A DNA stretch of 64,000 nucleotides. It comes from Chitinophagaceae bacterium. Lineage in GTDB: Bacteria; Bacteroidota; Bacteroidia; Chitinophagales; Chitinophagaceae. Shown here in pieces: positions 38,337 through 42,758 of this stretch. Position 1 is the stretch's first letter. Each line of letters opens with the position of its first letter. The DNA lies in NCBI GenBank assembly GCA_947447465.1, contig CANFKE010000013.1:1-64000 (forward strand), in the 5' to 3' direction. The notes below the pieces were generated by a model. The model was not told where the DNA came from. It saw only the letters and a program-made list of their open reading frames with translations, and did not search any database. A program made the translations under genes and the position numbers.

Positions 38337-38918
38337 ATGCAGTATAAAGAAATAGTTTCTGTAACCGGCCTTAGTGGCCTTTACCAATTATTGACCACCA
38401 AGAGTGATGGTGCTATTGTGCGTAACATTGGCGATAAGACTACCAAGTTCATATCTGCCCGCCAACATAATGTAACCCCGCTGGAAAGCATAGAAGTATA
38501 TACTATAGCTGAGAACGTGCGTTTGCATAATGTATTCCAGAAAATGGTGGAACATGAAACATCTATACCTCCCGTAGATCCTAAAACAGCTACTAAGGAA
38601 GGTATTTCAGGATATTTCAAAAGCGTATTCCCTGAATTTGACGAGGAAAGGGTATATGTAAGTGATATGAAGAAGATGCTGAAGTGGTTCGAGTTGTTGA
38701 AGGCTAACGATCTGCTTCATTTCGAAGCACAGGTAGCTGAAGATAATGCCGCCGGCGAAGAAGCTGCTCCTGTAGTTGAGGCGCCTGCTGCTCCTGTAGC
38801 TGAAGAAAAGCCTGCAAAGAAAGCTGCCAAGAAAAAAGCTGTAGCTGAAGATGCTGCAGAAGGTGAAGAAAAGCCTGCAAAGAAAGCTGCTCCGAAAAAG
38901 AAGAAAACTGAAGAATAA
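38337..38918 (+). CDS. DUF5606/DUF6852 protein with Lys/Ala-rich tail
   Basis: A 193-residue protein. Residues 1-70 form the DUF5606 domain (MQYKEIVSVTGLSGLYQLL, KTTKFISARQHNVTPLESIEVYTI), followed by a helical DUF6852-like region (EGISGYFKSVFPEFDEERVYVSD). The last 60 residues are low-complexity Ala/Lys/Glu/Pro (EEKPAKKAAKKKAVAED), with the EEKPAKKAA unit repeated; such tails bind nucleic acids or are disordered. The family is widespread in Bacteroidota and of unknown function. Confidence 0.82.
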   Translation: MQYKEIVSVTGLSGLYQLLTTKSDGAIVRNIGDKTTKFISARQHNVTPLESIEVYTIAENVRLHNVFQKMVEHETSIPPVDPKTATKEGISGYFKSVFPEFDEERVYVSDMKKMLKWFELLKANDLLHFEAQVAEDNAAGEEAAPVVEAPAAPVAEEKPAKKAAKKKAVAEDAAEGEEKPAKKAAPKKKKTEE

Positions 38919-38962: not shown

Positions 38963-38990
38963 TTTAAAGCCCGCACCTGCGGGCTTTAAA
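38963..38990. terminator. Terminator after DUF5606 gene
   Basis: A nearly perfect 12-bp stem (TTAAAGCCCGC / GCGGGCTTTAA, loop ACCT) with AT-rich flanks on both sides. Confidence 0.85.
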
Positions 38991-39120: not shown

Positions 39121-39144
39121 ATGAGCTCAGACATCGTAAAGTGA
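39121..39144 (+). promoter_or_regulatory. Possible 7-residue leader ORF overlapping the array operon start
   Basis: ATG AGC TCA GAC ATC GTA AAG TGA encodes MSSDIVK. Its stop overlaps the GTG start of the next gene in the sequence GTGA. This could couple initiation at the weak GTG to upstream translation, but chance cannot be excluded. Confidence 0.35.
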
Positions 39145-39989
39145 AAAGGCCGCAACATATAACCCTGAATAGTCCTTGCCACGAGGATTGGGATAGCATG
39201 TCTGTAACGGATAGGGGACGGTATTGCGATACATGCCGGAAGGTAGTGATAGACTTTACCTTGATGAGTGACGGGCAGGTGCTGGATATATTTAAGCGTG
39301 CTAAAGACAATCCGCCATGTGGCAGATTTCTGAATACACAGCTTGACCGGCCGCTGATAGATAAAGACCATAAGCCATCATTTTCTGCTTTGGTAGCAAA
39401 GCGTATTGCGGCAGCATTAATATTGTTGCAGTCGCTAACAACAGAGGTGCTGGCGCAACAGATAAAGAAACATACTCCGGTGCCCCAGCAAGTATATAAA
39501 GACAAGCAAAAGGTTAAGGCGGAAAGAATCATAAGGGGGCGTGTGGTGGATGGTACGTGTAGTGGAGCTCTGACAAGTGTCGATATTTATATAAAAAATA
39601 CCGGGATCAAAACAGTAACAGATAGTTCAGGCAGGTTCTCTTTTATTTTGCCTGATAGTTTACATAGCCCGGAAATACAGTTGGAGGGAAAGCAAAAGGG
39701 ACAATTGGTTACTCAATTAACGATCAATATTGCTGCCAATGCTGGTAGAGAGGTTGTCATGCAGCAACAGTCGGTTCACCCCACAACTACAGAGATAACA
39801 GATATCGTGTCTGTAGCACCTGCTATTTATCAAAGAATGGGTGGAGGGCGCATCAATACAGACGCCGGTAGATCTTCGGGCTATCTGTACGTTATAGATG
39901 GCGTAGAAGTACCTTCTGAGCATAAGTCGCTGTGGCAACGCGTTACCAAGCCTTTCAGAAAAAAAACCATGACGAATGAATCTAAGTAG
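39141..39989 (+). CDS. Array paralogue 1: Cys4 module, TM helix, CarboxypepD_reg-like domain, plug-like fragment
   Basis: A 282-residue protein starting at GTG (a stop lies 21 nt upstream and no ATG is in frame). Residues 1-72: PCHEDWDSM, RGRYCDTCRKVVIDFTLMSDG, PPCGRFLNTQLDRPL, with Cys13, 29, 32 and 60 spaced C-X15-C-X2-C-X27-C, a likely zinc or thiol module. Then a transmembrane helix (87-105) and a beta domain (IRGRVVDGTCSGALTSVDIY, DSSGRFSFILPDSL). Residues 222-260 (IVSVAPAIYQRMGGG, YVIDGVEVP) resemble the plug of TonB receptors. A basic tail ends the protein. First gene of a five-gene operon, overlapping the next by 14 nt. Confidence 0.82.
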   Translation: MKRPQHITLNSPCHEDWDSMSVTDRGRYCDTCRKVVIDFTLMSDGQVLDIFKRAKDNPPCGRFLNTQLDRPLIDKDHKPSFSALVAKRIAAALILLQSLTTEVLAQQIKKHTPVPQQVYKDKQKVKAERIIRGRVVDGTCSGALTSVDIYIKNTGIKTVTDSSGRFSFILPDSLHSPEIQLEGKQKGQLVTQLTINIAANAGREVVMQQQSVHPTTTEITDIVSVAPAIYQRMGGGRINTDAGRSSGYLYVIDGVEVPSEHKSLWQRVTKPFRKKTMTNESK

Positions 39990-40608
39990 TCTCGCCATAT
40001 CCATCCGTCTGTCATGCCTTATGACGGCACTTCTGCTGCTTATAACAGCTCCGGGATGGTCGCAGCAGGCTGGCCTGGATATGAGTGGCGGGTATCAAAC
40101 TGAGAAGGATACCTTGGGCCCTAAACAACTAAGAGAGATACACGGAAGAGTAAGAGATGTGCATAATGCTACTATGGCAGGTATTACGGTATACATAAAG
40201 GGGATACCCGTAAGTGCAGTGACAGACGATACCGGAGACTTTACCCTCTTGCTGCCAGATACATTACAGGCAACACAGCTATTGCTGGTAGCAGAAATAA
40301 ATAGCAGTGCGATTGGCGGAGTAACCGTGGATATCAGAGACGATGCAAATGTGTCTTTGTACTTGCAGCCAAGCCTGAGGATAATAAACTCTCCTTCAGG
40401 AAAGTCAGATTTGATCCGCACAATAGGTGGGCCTGAGCCAAATGATATTGTTGCGGTGTCCCCCGGCATTTATCAGCAAAAGAGAGGTGGAGCGGCACCA
40501 AATGCGACAAGCAGCACACCTGCTATTGTACCTAAGGATAAGCACACCTTTCGGGGGCGCAATGTCAAGTCATTCAAGAAAAAACACCTGACTAATGAAA
40601 CAAAATAA
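39976..40608 (+). CDS. Array paralogue 2: exported, lacks the Cys4 module
   Basis: A 210-residue protein related to its neighbours. The N-terminal Cys module is absent; instead it starts with a signal or anchor (LSCLMTALLLLITAPGWSQQ). The CarboxypepD_reg-like domain follows (IHGRVRDVHNATMAGITVYI, VTDDTGDFTLLLPDTL), then NDIVAVSPGIYQQKRGGAAP, which matches the plug-like fragment of paralogue 1, and a basic end (FKKKHLTNETK) close to paralogue 1 (FRKKTMTNESK). Its stop overlaps the next gene by 14 nt, exactly as paralogue 1 overlaps this one. Confidence 0.8.
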   Translation: MNLSSLAISIRLSCLMTALLLLITAPGWSQQAGLDMSGGYQTEKDTLGPKQLREIHGRVRDVHNATMAGITVYIKGIPVSAVTDDTGDFTLLLPDTLQATQLLLVAEINSSAIGGVTVDIRDDANVSLYLQPSLRIINSPSGKSDLIRTIGGPEPNDIVAVSPGIYQQKRGGAAPNATSSTPAIVPKDKHTFRGRNVKSFKKKHLTNETK

Positions 40609-41500
40609 TCCTATCATAACCATCCCCGATCCTTGCCACGAAAACTGGGATGAGATGACCCCAGTTCAACAGGGGCGGCATTGTGCTATGTGTCAGAAAA
40701 CAGTGATAGATTTTACCTTGATGAGTGACGGGCAGATTCTGGAAGTGATCAAAAAGGCGAATGGTCGTATCCCATGTGGCAGATATCTCCCCTCACAGCT
40801 CGACAGACCGCTCATAGATAACAGACCCAGCTCAGGACCTATTGGGTATATTATTAAACGGATAGCCGCTATGGTATTGATGGTGCAGTCTGTAACAACG
40901 TCTATGGCGCAGCAGTCAAAGAAGCATCTGGTAACTGTAGAACAATATGAGGAGTATGATAAAGATGCACAGGGACGCATACAGGTATCGGGCAAGTTGA
41001 TAGACTCACTAAGTAAAACACCGGTTCCACAAATGAGTGTTTATATCAAACAGATCGATACTACTCTGTTTACAGATGCCAACGGGCTGTTTTCTTTTGC
41101 CATGCCTGCTGATCTGGATACTGTAACGGTATTACTGAACCGGAAACAATTTCCTGATAATACAGTGCATGTGGCGTTACCCGGTGCTTCTTTAATTCCC
41201 GAAATGATAGTTCCTGTTCATAAGACGAAGAGCGGAGGGGAGATGGTAGTGGCTATGCCGCAGATAACTTATCAATTAATTTATACTGAAATGCCCCAAG
41301 TAATGGGTGCATCTATTGGTCCGCAAACAATAACCACGGTAGATTGGTTAAAGGCAGTCAGATCTACGATTTGTTATCAACTGCCTAAAGCAAAGCCGAT
41401 CCTTAAACTTCGGGGGAAAGAACCAGTAGCACAATCAGAAAAGACAGTATGGGGCAGGCTGACGAATTACTGGATGGGTAAGAAAAATGGAGGTAAATAA
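40595..41500 (+). CDS. Array paralogue 3: Cys4 module, TM helix, CarboxypepD_reg-like domain
   Basis: A 301-residue protein with the full N-terminal module (PDPCHENWDEMTPVQQGRHC, AMCQKTVIDFTLMSDGQ, IPCGRYLPSQLDRPLID); Cys14, 30, 33 and 61 keep the C-X15-C-X2-C-X27-C spacing. A transmembrane helix (IIKRIAAMVLMVQSVTT) precedes the beta domain (VSGKLIDSLSKTPVPQMSVYI, TDANGLFSFAMPADL). The C-terminal 100 residues differ from the other copies, without a clear plug-like part. The end overlaps the next start as TAATG. Confidence 0.8.
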   Translation: MKQNNPIITIPDPCHENWDEMTPVQQGRHCAMCQKTVIDFTLMSDGQILEVIKKANGRIPCGRYLPSQLDRPLIDNRPSSGPIGYIIKRIAAMVLMVQSVTTSMAQQSKKHLVTVEQYEEYDKDAQGRIQVSGKLIDSLSKTPVPQMSVYIKQIDTTLFTDANGLFSFAMPADLDTVTVLLNRKQFPDNTVHVALPGASLIPEMIVPVHKTKSGGEMVVAMPQITYQLIYTEMPQVMGASIGPQTITTVDWLKAVRSTICYQLPKAKPILKLRGKEPVAQSEKTVWGRLTNYWMGKKNGGK

Positions 41501-42315
41501 TGGCAACAATGAATAAAAGCAACTTGAAAATAACATTGCCACTTCCATGTCAGGAAGTATGGGATACAATGACACCTGTGTCTCAAGGGCGTCACTGTGA
41601 TCAGTGCAGCAAGACCGTTATAGATTTTACGCTGATGAGTGACGGAGAGATACTGGATATTTTCAGTAAAGCAAAAGGTTGTACGCCTTGCGGGCATTTT
41701 CTGGAAACGCAACTGAACAGAGAGTTAGTAGATACTCGGTATAAGCCTTCATTGATTGTAACGATAGCCAAAAGAGCTGCCGCATTGGTGTTTTTGTGGC
41801 AATCGATAGCAGTAGCGGCCTTAGCACAAACAGTGAAAAAGACACCGGTAAACAGGGTCGCCAGTAAGAAGACCATGCAGGCAAAAGATAGTCGGCTACA
41901 GATATGCGGGTATGTTGAACACTATGAGCACGGAGGGCCGATAGGCGGAGTAAAGGTAACAATCAAAGGAACCCAGATAGAGAGTGTTTCAGATAATTCA
42001 GGTATGTTCATACTAACTTTGCCGGATAGTTTCTATATGGAACATCTATTAATAGAAGGGACTATAGAAGGCAAAGCTAATACCGAGGTGATAGAAGAGC
42101 AAGCTATGTCTTTTAATGATGTATTGAATAACAAAGAACTGAAACTGTTTGCTTATAAAGTACAGATATTGTCTGTTCACAATGTTACCCAAAATAATTA
42201 CAGACCGGTAAAACTGACCGGGACAGCGCCCATGCAACCGGTGAGGATAGCGCCTGTGGAAACAGGTATCTGGAGTAAGATCAGAAAACCTTTCAAAAGA
42301 AAGAAACATAGCTAA
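41500..42315 (+). CDS. Array paralogue 4: Cys4 module, TM helix, CarboxypepD_reg-like domain
   Basis: A 271-residue protein with PCQEVWDTMTPVSQGRHC, DQCSKTVIDFTLMSDGE and CTPCGHFLETQLNRELVD. Cys17, 33, 36 and 64 repeat the fixed spacing, with an extra Cys61. A transmembrane helix (VTIAKRAAALVFLWQSIAVAAL) and the beta domain (ICGYVEHYEHGGPIGGVKVTIKG, DNSGMFILTLPDSF) follow. The end is basic (IRKPFKRKKHS). A start at the ATG at 41509 is possible. It is translationally coupled to both neighbours (TAATG junctions). Confidence 0.8.
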   Translation: MATMNKSNLKITLPLPCQEVWDTMTPVSQGRHCDQCSKTVIDFTLMSDGEILDIFSKAKGCTPCGHFLETQLNRELVDTRYKPSLIVTIAKRAAALVFLWQSIAVAALAQTVKKTPVNRVASKKTMQAKDSRLQICGYVEHYEHGGPIGGVKVTIKGTQIESVSDNSGMFILTLPDSFYMEHLLIEGTIEGKANTEVIEEQAMSFNDVLNNKELKLFAYKVQILSVHNVTQNNYRPVKLTGTAPMQPVRIAPVETGIWSKIRKPFKRKKHS

Positions 42316-42758
42316 TGAGGAAAGTAGTGGTCGTAATATTGTTGTCGCTGATAGTTTCCGAGACTTTTGCGCAGCAAAGCAAACAGTTGAAGAAAACGGT
42401 AAGACCTTATGTAAGGTCGGGTGTAGTTGCAGCTCCTGCGCCGGAGGTATTCATGTATGTAGAACAACAGGCAGACTTCAACAGCGGTTCGGCCGGATTA
42501 GATAAATACCTGGATAATTCTCTTTACTACCCCGAACAGGCAAAAGAAGCTGAAGTTGAAGGGATAGTTTACGTTCGTTTTAAGATTGATGAAGCAGGGT
42601 CTATTACAGATGTGAGATTGATCAGGGGGATAGGTTTCGGTTGTGATGAGGAAGCGTTGCGGGTTGTAAAAGCGATGCCTGCATGGCGACCGGCAAAATT
42701 GAATGGCCGCCCCGTATCATCTATATTCATGTTACCTGTAGCGTTCAAGTTAAAATAA
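42315..42758 (+). CDS. TonB C-terminal-domain protein
   Basis: A 147-residue protein with a signal-like N-terminus (MRKVVVVILLSLIVSETFAQQ) and a TonB C-terminal domain: YYPEQAKEAEVEGIVYVRFKI, DEEALRVVKAMPAWRPAKLNG. TonB domains touch the TonB box and plug of outer-membrane receptors. Compared with standard TonB it is short, and lacks the long Pro-rich periplasmic linker; if the leader is cleaved it would be soluble in the periplasm and could not transmit ExbB/D energy directly. ExbB and ExbD are not nearby. Last gene of the operon. Confidence 0.85.
   Translation: MRKVVVVILLSLIVSETFAQQSKQLKKTVRPYVRSGVVAAPAPEVFMYVEQQADFNSGSAGLDKYLDNSLYYPEQAKEAEVEGIVYVRFKIDEAGSITDVRLIRGIGFGCDEEALRVVKAMPAWRPAKLNGRPVSSIFMLPVAFKLK

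What the first reader, a model, noticed from the sequence alone, without database searches (positions are those of the whole stretch)
39141..42758. Operon of four tandem Cys4-TM-beta-domain paralogues capped by a TonB-domain protein
Three copies share an exactly fixed spacing, C-X15-C-X2-C-X27-C, together with (C)HExWD, GRxC, VIDFTLMSDG and CGxxL..QL.R. A transmembrane helix and a periplasmic CarboxypepD_reg-like domain follow. The fourth copy has lost the Cys module. The operon ends with a TonB C-terminal domain that has no Pro-rich linker. The Cys module is expected on the cytoplasmic side and the beta domain in the periplasm, so the layout suggests an envelope-sensing or TonB-modulating system. 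Similar modules occur singly in Bacteroidota; I know of no described function for a tandem array. The Cys spacing and overlaps are visible; the signalling idea is inference.
Basis: partly seen in the sequence, partly recalled or inferred. Interest (0 to 1): 0.8.

Follow-up and report, generated by a model that had tools for sequence, protein, structure and literature searches.

The report
Cut-off cysteine head on secreted proteins
Three proteins of this bacterial operon carry a strictly conserved four-cysteine domain in front of a segment with the marks of a cleavable export signal, so the domain would be cut off and stay inside the cell while the rest, which resembles pieces of the TonB–transporter contact, is predicted to leave; it matters because we found no description of such a detachable inner head, which likely controls export.

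Summary
In detail: five overlapping genes (39141-42758), three with an identical C-X15-C-X2-C-X27-C module, one module-less copy (the second gene, not the fourth) and a TonB_C protein. The module belongs to a large Bacteroidota family for which no Pfam or NCBIfam model was recognised.

The "transmembrane helix" has the marks of an internal signal peptide. Among 119 non-redundant relatives, 100 have a strict signal-peptidase-I or lipobox motif at its end, against 21.6±3.6 in shuffles and 1 of 20 real membrane anchors. In P0015-type (mostly Flavobacterium) TonB_C fusions the lipobox Cys is 120/120. Of 120 listed relatives 51 carry a type IX secretion tail, which fits poorly with a permanent inner-membrane anchor. 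The cargo varies (SusC NTE-like domains, TonB_C, T9SS tails); the head is the constant part (61% versus 29% identity between array neighbours).

Best reading: a cytosolic, probably metal-binding head is cut from a secretory precursor by signal peptidase and likely gates or pilots export. Cleavage, metal binding and the head's role are untested. A TonB link is supported (fused in 36 of 176 ORFs, adjacent in a few loci); in Chitinophagaceae relatives an ECF sigma gene often lies divergently upstream.

The parts
38963..38990 (+). terminator-like hairpin between the DUF5606 gene and the operon
   Evidence: 12-pair stem, 4-base loop; consensus match only, 4 found against 2.9 expected
39141..39989 (+). 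gene 1: Cys4 head + internal export signal + NTE-like beta domain
39144..39368 (+). Cys4 head of gene 1 (C13, C29, C32, C60)
   Evidence: E 8.0e-40 to module profile (the profile holds this sequence)
39399..39455 (+). predicted internal signal peptide of gene 1, KRIAAALILLQSLTTEVLA|QQ
39525..39764 (+). NTE/CarboxypepD_reg-like beta domain of gene 1 (residues 129-208)
39976..40608 (+). gene 2: paralogue without Cys head; starts directly with a predicted signal peptide (39976-40062, ..APGWS|QQ) followed by NTE-like domain (40138-40365)
40595..41500 (+). gene 3: Cys4 head + internal export signal + NTE-like domain (40982-41167)
40601..40825 (+). Cys4 head of gene 3
   Evidence: E 2.6e-40 (the profile holds this sequence); AF2 model
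40856..40909 (+). predicted internal signal peptide of gene 3, KRIAAMVLMVQSVTTSMA|QQ
41500..42315 (+). gene 4: Cys4 head + internal export signal + NTE-like domain (41902-42027)
41512..41739 (+). Cys4 head of gene 4
   Evidence: E 7.9e-40 (the profile holds this sequence)
41770..41826 (+). predicted internal signal peptide of gene 4, KRAAALVFLWQSIAVAALA|QT
42315..42758 (+). gene 5: free TonB C-terminal domain protein, predicted to be exported; signal-peptide-like start 42315-42371 (..SETFA|QQ), TonB_C 42522-42752

Best explanation
The Cys4 module sits in front of a segment with the marks of a cleavable signal peptide, so it is most likely the cytosolic head of a secretory precursor, is predicted to be cut off by signal peptidase (I in the window, II in relatives), and would probably act before the cut as a metal-dependent gate or pilot for export. 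What leaves the cell varies: SusC NTE-like beta domains here, TonB C-terminal domains on predicted lipoproteins in Flavobacterium and its kin, or T9SS-tailed proteins. In the window, four NTE-like proteins and one free TonB C-terminal domain are encoded together; in SusC transporters the NTE lies just before the TonB box, so these products would act at that contact (inferred). Shown by sequence: head conservation, signal motifs, cargo types, operon. Inferred: cleavage, metal binding, gating. I put about 0.88 on the cleavable architecture and about 0.4 on the gate/pilot role.
For: (1) Strict SPase I or lipobox motif at the end of the hydrophobic segment in 100 of 119 non-redundant relatives, against 21.6±3.6 (max 31) in 200 shuffles and 1 of 20 real N-in anchors of the P0013 type. 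(2) The segment is less hydrophobic than those anchors: KD19 median 1.35 against 2.25; 25 of 119 against 19 of 20 reach 1.6. Net charge of the 10 residues before it is +2 (median). (3) TonB_C fusions: all 36 of 176 ORFs with TonB_C are in the lipobox class, none in the 95 of the SPase I class (by an iterated profile, Pfam's own model sees 13 of 119); lipobox Cys 120 of 120 listed P0015 relatives. (4) T9SS tail in 51 of 120 listed relatives, all 51 with the head, and Por_Secre_tail in 15 of 119. (5) Natural head-less paralogues start directly at a signal peptide: window gene 2 and L077:8366-9001. (6) Head 61% versus exported part 29% identity (medians) in 75 within-locus pairs, head higher in 74. 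(7) Cargo is NTE-like: RagA E 4.5e-10 and SusC NTE 9hfj 6e-10 with a profile of 54 sequences, 9hfj top by fold.
Against: No cleavage, lipidation, metal or localisation data were available. 19 of 119 relatives lack a strict motif. The motif patterns were set after looking at the sequences, and the shuffle rate is not small. 14 of 33 lipobox-class segments reach KD19 1.6, as do window genes 1 and 4 (1.61, 1.72; gene 3 1.41). The exported part of gene 1 alone finds no PDB sequence and the window proteins score below Pfam's cut-offs for the NTE models; the assignment rests on the family profile and the fold. The gate/pilot role has no direct support; the 90% conservation of the signal segment in P0015 relatives and the ECF sigma neighbours fit a signalling role as well. 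The window's array has no ECF sigma neighbour.
Confidence: 0.7

Rival explanations
1. The protein works like RsiV/RsiP: a cytosolic regulatory head, a signal-peptidase-cut membrane segment and an outer sensor. The cut (site 1) and intramembrane clearing of the stub would release or destroy the Cys4 head and so change gene expression, for example through the neighbouring ECF sigma factor.
For: RsiV and RsiP are anti-sigma factors cut by signal peptidase (PMC8844934, passages read). An ECF sigma gene lies divergently within 1.5 kb upstream in 16 of 30 family loci and 7 of 79 genome-contig loci; a rough estimate from the sigma gene density is about 1% by chance. The signal segment of 120 P0015 relatives is 90% identical (median to P0015) against 45% for the linker, unusual for a segment with a targeting role only.
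Against: No sigma neighbour in the window or in most loci (27 of 140 loci with a module have one, some of these fetched twice). Where a P0013-type protein lies beside the sigma gene it is the likelier anti-sigma factor (inference). The head's predicted fold is beta strands plus a helix without the H-x3-C-x2-C zinc anti-sigma signature (recalled). T9SS-tailed and lipoprotein cargo is not a typical sensor.
Confidence: 0.25
2. One reading: a stable single-pass membrane receptor with a cytosolic Cys module and a periplasmic beta domain that senses the envelope or modulates TonB.
For: AF2 gives a helix at residues 81-100 between two confident domains; window genes 1 and 4 have KD19 of 1.61 and 1.72.
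Against: Signal-peptidase and lipobox motifs in 100 of 119 relatives against 1 of 20 real anchors; T9SS tails in 51 of 120 listed relatives; head-less paralogues with ordinary signal peptides.
Confidence: 0.1
3. Two products from one gene: translation sometimes starts inside, giving an ordinary secreted protein, while the long form stays cytosolic.
For: In 94 of 120 P0015 relatives a Met stands just before the hydrophobic segment.
Against: That Met is Ile in 23 and Leu in 3 of 120, and the window copies have no Met just before the segment.
Confidence: 0.04

Closest known systems
RsiV / RsiP anti-sigma factors of Bacillus
   Same: Cytosolic N-terminal domain, a membrane segment cut by signal peptidase I, and an exported domain (PMC8844934, passages); an ECF sigma gene is adjacent in many Chitinophagaceae relatives
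   Different: Different head (Cys4, no anti-sigma model among the hits shown), variable and secreted cargo, lipobox and T9SS versions, tandem arrays, no sigma neighbour in the window
Extended signal peptides of autotransporters (ESPR; long signal sequences, PMC2805444, seen in search listing and abstract start only)
   Same: Conserved N-terminal stretch in front of a Sec signal peptide, shared by different cargo (partly recalled)
   Different: Here a 75-residue predicted folded Cys4 domain, also in front of lipoboxes, in Bacteroidota; cargo is not an autotransporter (ESPR length recalled as about 25 residues)
NTE domain (PF13715) of SusC/RagA transporters
   Same: Cargo fold and family profile (66 of 119 relatives hit TIGR04056 at E 0.01 or better)
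   Different: Free small protein without the outer-membrane barrel
TonB energy transducers
   Same: Gene 5 and the Flavobacterium fusions hold a TonB C-terminal domain
   Different: No N-terminal membrane anchor or Pro-rich linker in gene 5; signal peptide or lipobox instead
T9SS type A cargo
   Same: Many relatives end in Por_Secre_tail
   Different: Window copies have no such tail; relatives have a cytosolic head before the signal peptide

Membership tests
Sec/SPase I signal peptide | positive n-region, short h-region, small residues at -3 and -1 | tested here: met
   Window copies KR..VLA|Q, SMA|Q, ALA|Q; strict type I motif in 67 of 119 relatives
Sec/SPase I signal peptide | located at the N-terminus | tested here: not met
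   It starts at residues 87-91, behind the Cys4 head; gene 2 and gene 5 do meet it
Sec/SPase I signal peptide | is cleaved | not testable with these tools
   needs protein data
Bacterial lipoprotein | lipobox with invariant Cys | tested here: not met
   Not in the window; met in relatives, 33 of 119 and 120 of 120 listed of the P0015 type
NTE / CarboxypepD_reg domain | profile and fold similarity to PF13715 or SusC NTE | tested here: met
   Profile A5 vs RagA 4.5e-10 and 9hfj 6e-10, Foldseek 9hfj 6.6e-5; single window proteins score below Pfam's cut-offs and gene 1 alone finds no PDB sequence
SusC TonB-dependent transporter | plug and 22-strand barrel | tested here: not met
   Exported parts of 162-196 residues in the window; no barrel in the gene 1 model
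TonB energy transducer (gene 5) | TonB_C domain | tested here: met
   PF03544 70.4 bits, cut-off 24.6
TonB energy transducer (gene 5) | N-terminal inner-membrane anchor and Pro-rich linker | tested here: not met
   19-residue signal-peptide-like start ending TFA|QQ, no Pro-rich stretch
RsiV/RsiP-type regulator | partner ECF sigma gene adjacent | tested here: not met
   None beside the window array; present in 16 of 30 family loci
RsiV/RsiP-type regulator | anti-sigma domain in the head | tested here: inconclusive
   No anti-sigma model among the 25 shown of 54 families that 121 module sequences touch at E up to 1, nor for the window proteins; a distant relation is not excluded
T9SS cargo | C-terminal sorting domain | tested here: not met
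   Not in the window copies; 51 of 120 listed relatives
Zinc-binding Cys4 domain | binds a metal through four Cys | not testable with these tools
   Near-invariant Cys suggests it; no coordinates were available and no PDB fold match was found

The most novel reading that the evidence does not exclude
A new class of secretory precursor: a folded Cys4 metal-binding head in front of an internal signal peptide is detached at each export event and stays in the cell as an export-coupled messenger, so that the cell counts or licenses the release of free NTE and TonB C-terminal domains which compete at the TonB–SusC contact.
Probability: 0.27. Interest if true: 0.87.

Novelty: new variant of a known kind. 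Interest (0 to 1): 0.7.

Why it matters
If right, a common Bacteroidota family (64 of 147 genomes of the window's family; 44 of 296 across the phylum) exports proteins whose signal peptide would be overlooked wherever signals are sought only at the N-terminus. It would give Bacteroidota a detachable cytosolic control head shared by SPase I, lipoprotein and T9SS routes, and would give a handle on two open points: what the SusC NTE does (described as unknown in PMC7782687, passages) and why free TonB C-terminal domains exist. The cleavage claim can be tested in one experiment.

Tried and rejected
Known domain for the head: none in Pfam or NCBIfam for the window proteins; for 121 module sequences Pfam gave 54 families at E up to 1, of which the 25 shown have best E-values of 0.0049 or worse and 1 to 9 members each, so chance level; no PDB sequence match of meaning (the HMG box hit is 19 residues, E 0.03), no PDB fold match. 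A weak or missing fold match for so small a domain does not show a new fold.

RiPP-lipoprotein precursor: an NCBIfam ChrA hit in 1 of 119 relatives (E 0.007) and a search listing led to PMC12636315 (abstract and passages); there the lipoprotein signal is N-terminal and the modified motif C-terminal, so rejected.

Flank synteny: dxs-like and tadA-like genes beside Flavobacterium copies (names recalled from sequence) are taken as conserved housekeeping order.

TonB adjacency as a general rule: TonB_C genes are nearly everywhere (145 of 147 genomes), and a separate TonB_C gene directly follows the array in only 4 of 79 loci (L039, L040, L042, L077). L103 also has a TonB_C ORF right behind a short head ORF, perhaps one broken gene.

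T9SS dependence: all 44 module-bearing genomes have SprA_N against 228 of 296 overall (Fisher 7e-6). This is confounded by phylogeny, so it is not used as support.

Control rows: five picked control ORFs (L148, L150, L151, L152, L158) were wrong frames or wrong proteins; rebuilt the set to 20 by an N-terminal motif, which also left out L147, L154 and L156 (no strict motif in any of them). One of the 20 (L136) matches the lipobox pattern inside its anchor and is counted. The 'weak' SPase pattern fits 11 of 19 controls and was not counted. Before counting, 179 module ORFs became 176 (E < 1e-10 and more than 40 residues behind) and 119 (under 75% identity).

Papers: searches gave no description of this head; many subscription papers are not held.
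Full report
What is there. Five genes on the + strand, 39141-42758, overlap by 14, 14, 1 and 1 bases. Genes 1, 3 and 4 start with a 75-residue module with identical C-X15-C-X2-C-X27-C spacing. Gene 2, not the last paralogue, lacks it. Gene 5 is a 147-residue TonB_C protein (E 1.8e-19) with a signal-peptide-like start. The own genome (92% complete) has one further module gene elsewhere (C8).

How common. With module profiles, 44 of 296 genomes drawn from the phylum and 64 of 147 from the family have it. A scan of genome contigs gave 534 confirmed stretches, of which the best 79 loci were fetched; by my reading of their titles all but one are Bacteroidota (the exception, labelled Limnohabitans, is probably mis-binned). 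45 of the 79 loci hold arrays of 2 to 4. C14, C30, C33 and C61 are kept in 121, 122, 122 and 121 of 122 sequences; C33 was part of the scan pattern.

The central correction. In all three window copies the hydrophobic segment behind the module reads K-R, a short hydrophobic core, then V-L-A, S-M-A or A-L-A before Q. Across 119 non-redundant relatives 67 end in a strict SPase I motif before Q and 33 in a lipobox, 13 in a weak motif and 6 in none; 200 shuffles of the same residues give 21.6±3.6 for the two strict classes, maximum 31. Real anchors are a better control: proteins of the P0013 type from related taxa have a cytosolic N-terminal part, a membrane segment and, in those scanned, NTE-like and TonB_C domains outside. 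Of 20 such anchors 1 fits a strict motif, and 19 reach KD19 1.6 against 25 of 119 module proteins. The patterns were chosen after seeing the sequences.

Independent support. Among relatives of P0015 (811 found, 120 listed, the named ones nearly all Flavobacterium), 120 of 120 listed keep the lipobox Cys, and the segment is 90% identical to P0015 (median) where the linker behind it is 45%; the four head Cys are kept in 116, 120, 120 and 119 of 120. A TonB_C lipoprotein paralogue in L077 (8366-9001) lacks the head and begins at the lipoprotein signal, as window gene 2 begins at its signal peptide. Of 119 relatives 15 carry Por_Secre_tail, and 51 of 120 listed (164 found) in the protein database do, all with the head; a T9SS substrate has to pass through the periplasm, which a permanent inner-membrane anchor would prevent (established knowledge of T9SS). 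The listing is sorted by score, so 51 of 120 is not a population rate.

What is exported. The window cargo is a beta domain like the N-terminal extension of SusC: the profile of gene 1 and 53 further sequences (window genes 3 and 4 among them) matches RagA (4.5e-10) and the isolated SusC NTE 9hfj (6e-10), and 9hfj is the top fold match of the gene 1 model, 6.6e-5, with AF2 confidence above 90 for residues 131-210. Gene 1's exported part alone finds no PDB sequence, and the window proteins stay below Pfam's cut-offs. 66 of 119 relatives hit the SusC model TIGR04056 (E 0.01 or better). In SusC the NTE precedes the TonB box; its function is described as unknown, with TonB specificity as a suggestion (PMC7782687, passages), and it is implicated in TBDT-TonB interaction (PMC12204202, passages). 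Thus the operon encodes relatives of both sides of one contact as free proteins. That they bind each other is inference.

Head versus cargo. In 75 within-locus pairs the head is 61% identical and the exported part 29% (medians), head higher in 74. In the window the pairs are 57, 58 and 62% against 24, 25 and 25%. The head starts within 60 residues of the first possible start codon in 205 of 209 distinct ORFs; the three ORFs that end right behind it look like broken or frameshifted genes.

TonB and sigma links. TonB_C follows the array as a separate gene in the window, in L039, L040, L042 and L077, and probably in G317 from coordinates (the list is cut, so others may exist). It is fused behind the head in 36 of 176 ORFs, all in the lipobox class (13 of 119 by Pfam's own model). 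In the family, 16 of 30 loci have an ECF sigma gene divergently upstream, 12 of them at 39 to 246 bases, and 7 of 79 genome-contig loci do; the 30 loci are the best-scoring ones, so the rate is biased upward. Sigma70_r4_2 matches number 16 to 94 per genome in 11 genomes, from which I estimate about 1% by chance. The window and most loci have no such neighbour.

Mechanism. Shown by sequence: head, segment with export motifs, variable cargo. Inferred: the cut, metal binding, role. I hold the cleavable architecture at about 0.88. For the role, a gate or pilot that acts before the cut (about 0.4) explains why one head serves three export routes; a messenger or RsiV-like regulator (about 0.25 to 0.3) explains the sigma neighbours and the conserved segment. 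RsiV and RsiP show that signal peptidase can cut behind a cytosolic regulatory domain (PMC8844934, passages).

Novelty. No library model for the head was recognised among the hits shown and eight literature searches gave no description; the paper library is partial. I file it as a new variant of a known kind, since extended signal peptides and signal-peptidase-cut membrane proteins exist.

Noticed in passing
L043:3593-5696, L088:5001-7155, L118, L119, L130, L136, L137, L139, L142: An ECF sigma gene beside a protein with an unassigned N-terminal cytosolic part and a membrane anchor (P0013 type; NTE-like and TonB_C domains outside in those scanned by Pfam), divergent from the Cys4 gene in Chitinophagaceae.
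   Followed up: partly
L119:1390-2847 and L028:1492-2016: Cys4 genes with an in-frame stop between head and export signal; in L028 the fourth Cys is also lost. They look like decaying copies.
   Followed up: no
G375:C11:67981-68196: Same-genus genome has four scattered Cys4 genes without an array; one match holds a TAA inside.
   Followed up: no
window 39882-39911: Gene 1 holds YLYVIDGVEV behind the NTE-like domain, like the start of a SusC plug (recalled signature); similar stretches in 4 of 215 relatives.
   Followed up: partly
window 39930-39989, 41440-41500, 42250-42315: Genes 1, 3 and 4 end in basic tails with a Trp (WQRVTKPFRKK, WGRLTNYWMGKK, WSKIRKPFKRKK); function unknown.
   Followed up: no
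window 38337-38918: Upstream DUF5606/DUF6852 gene with a low-complexity Lys/Ala tail.
   Followed up: no
L020:1510-1884: Cys4 head plus export signal with only about 30 residues behind it, so head and signal may matter without cargo.
   Followed up: no
L076: Contig labelled Limnohabitans carries two lipobox-type Cys4 genes; probably a mis-binned Bacteroidota contig.
   Followed up: no
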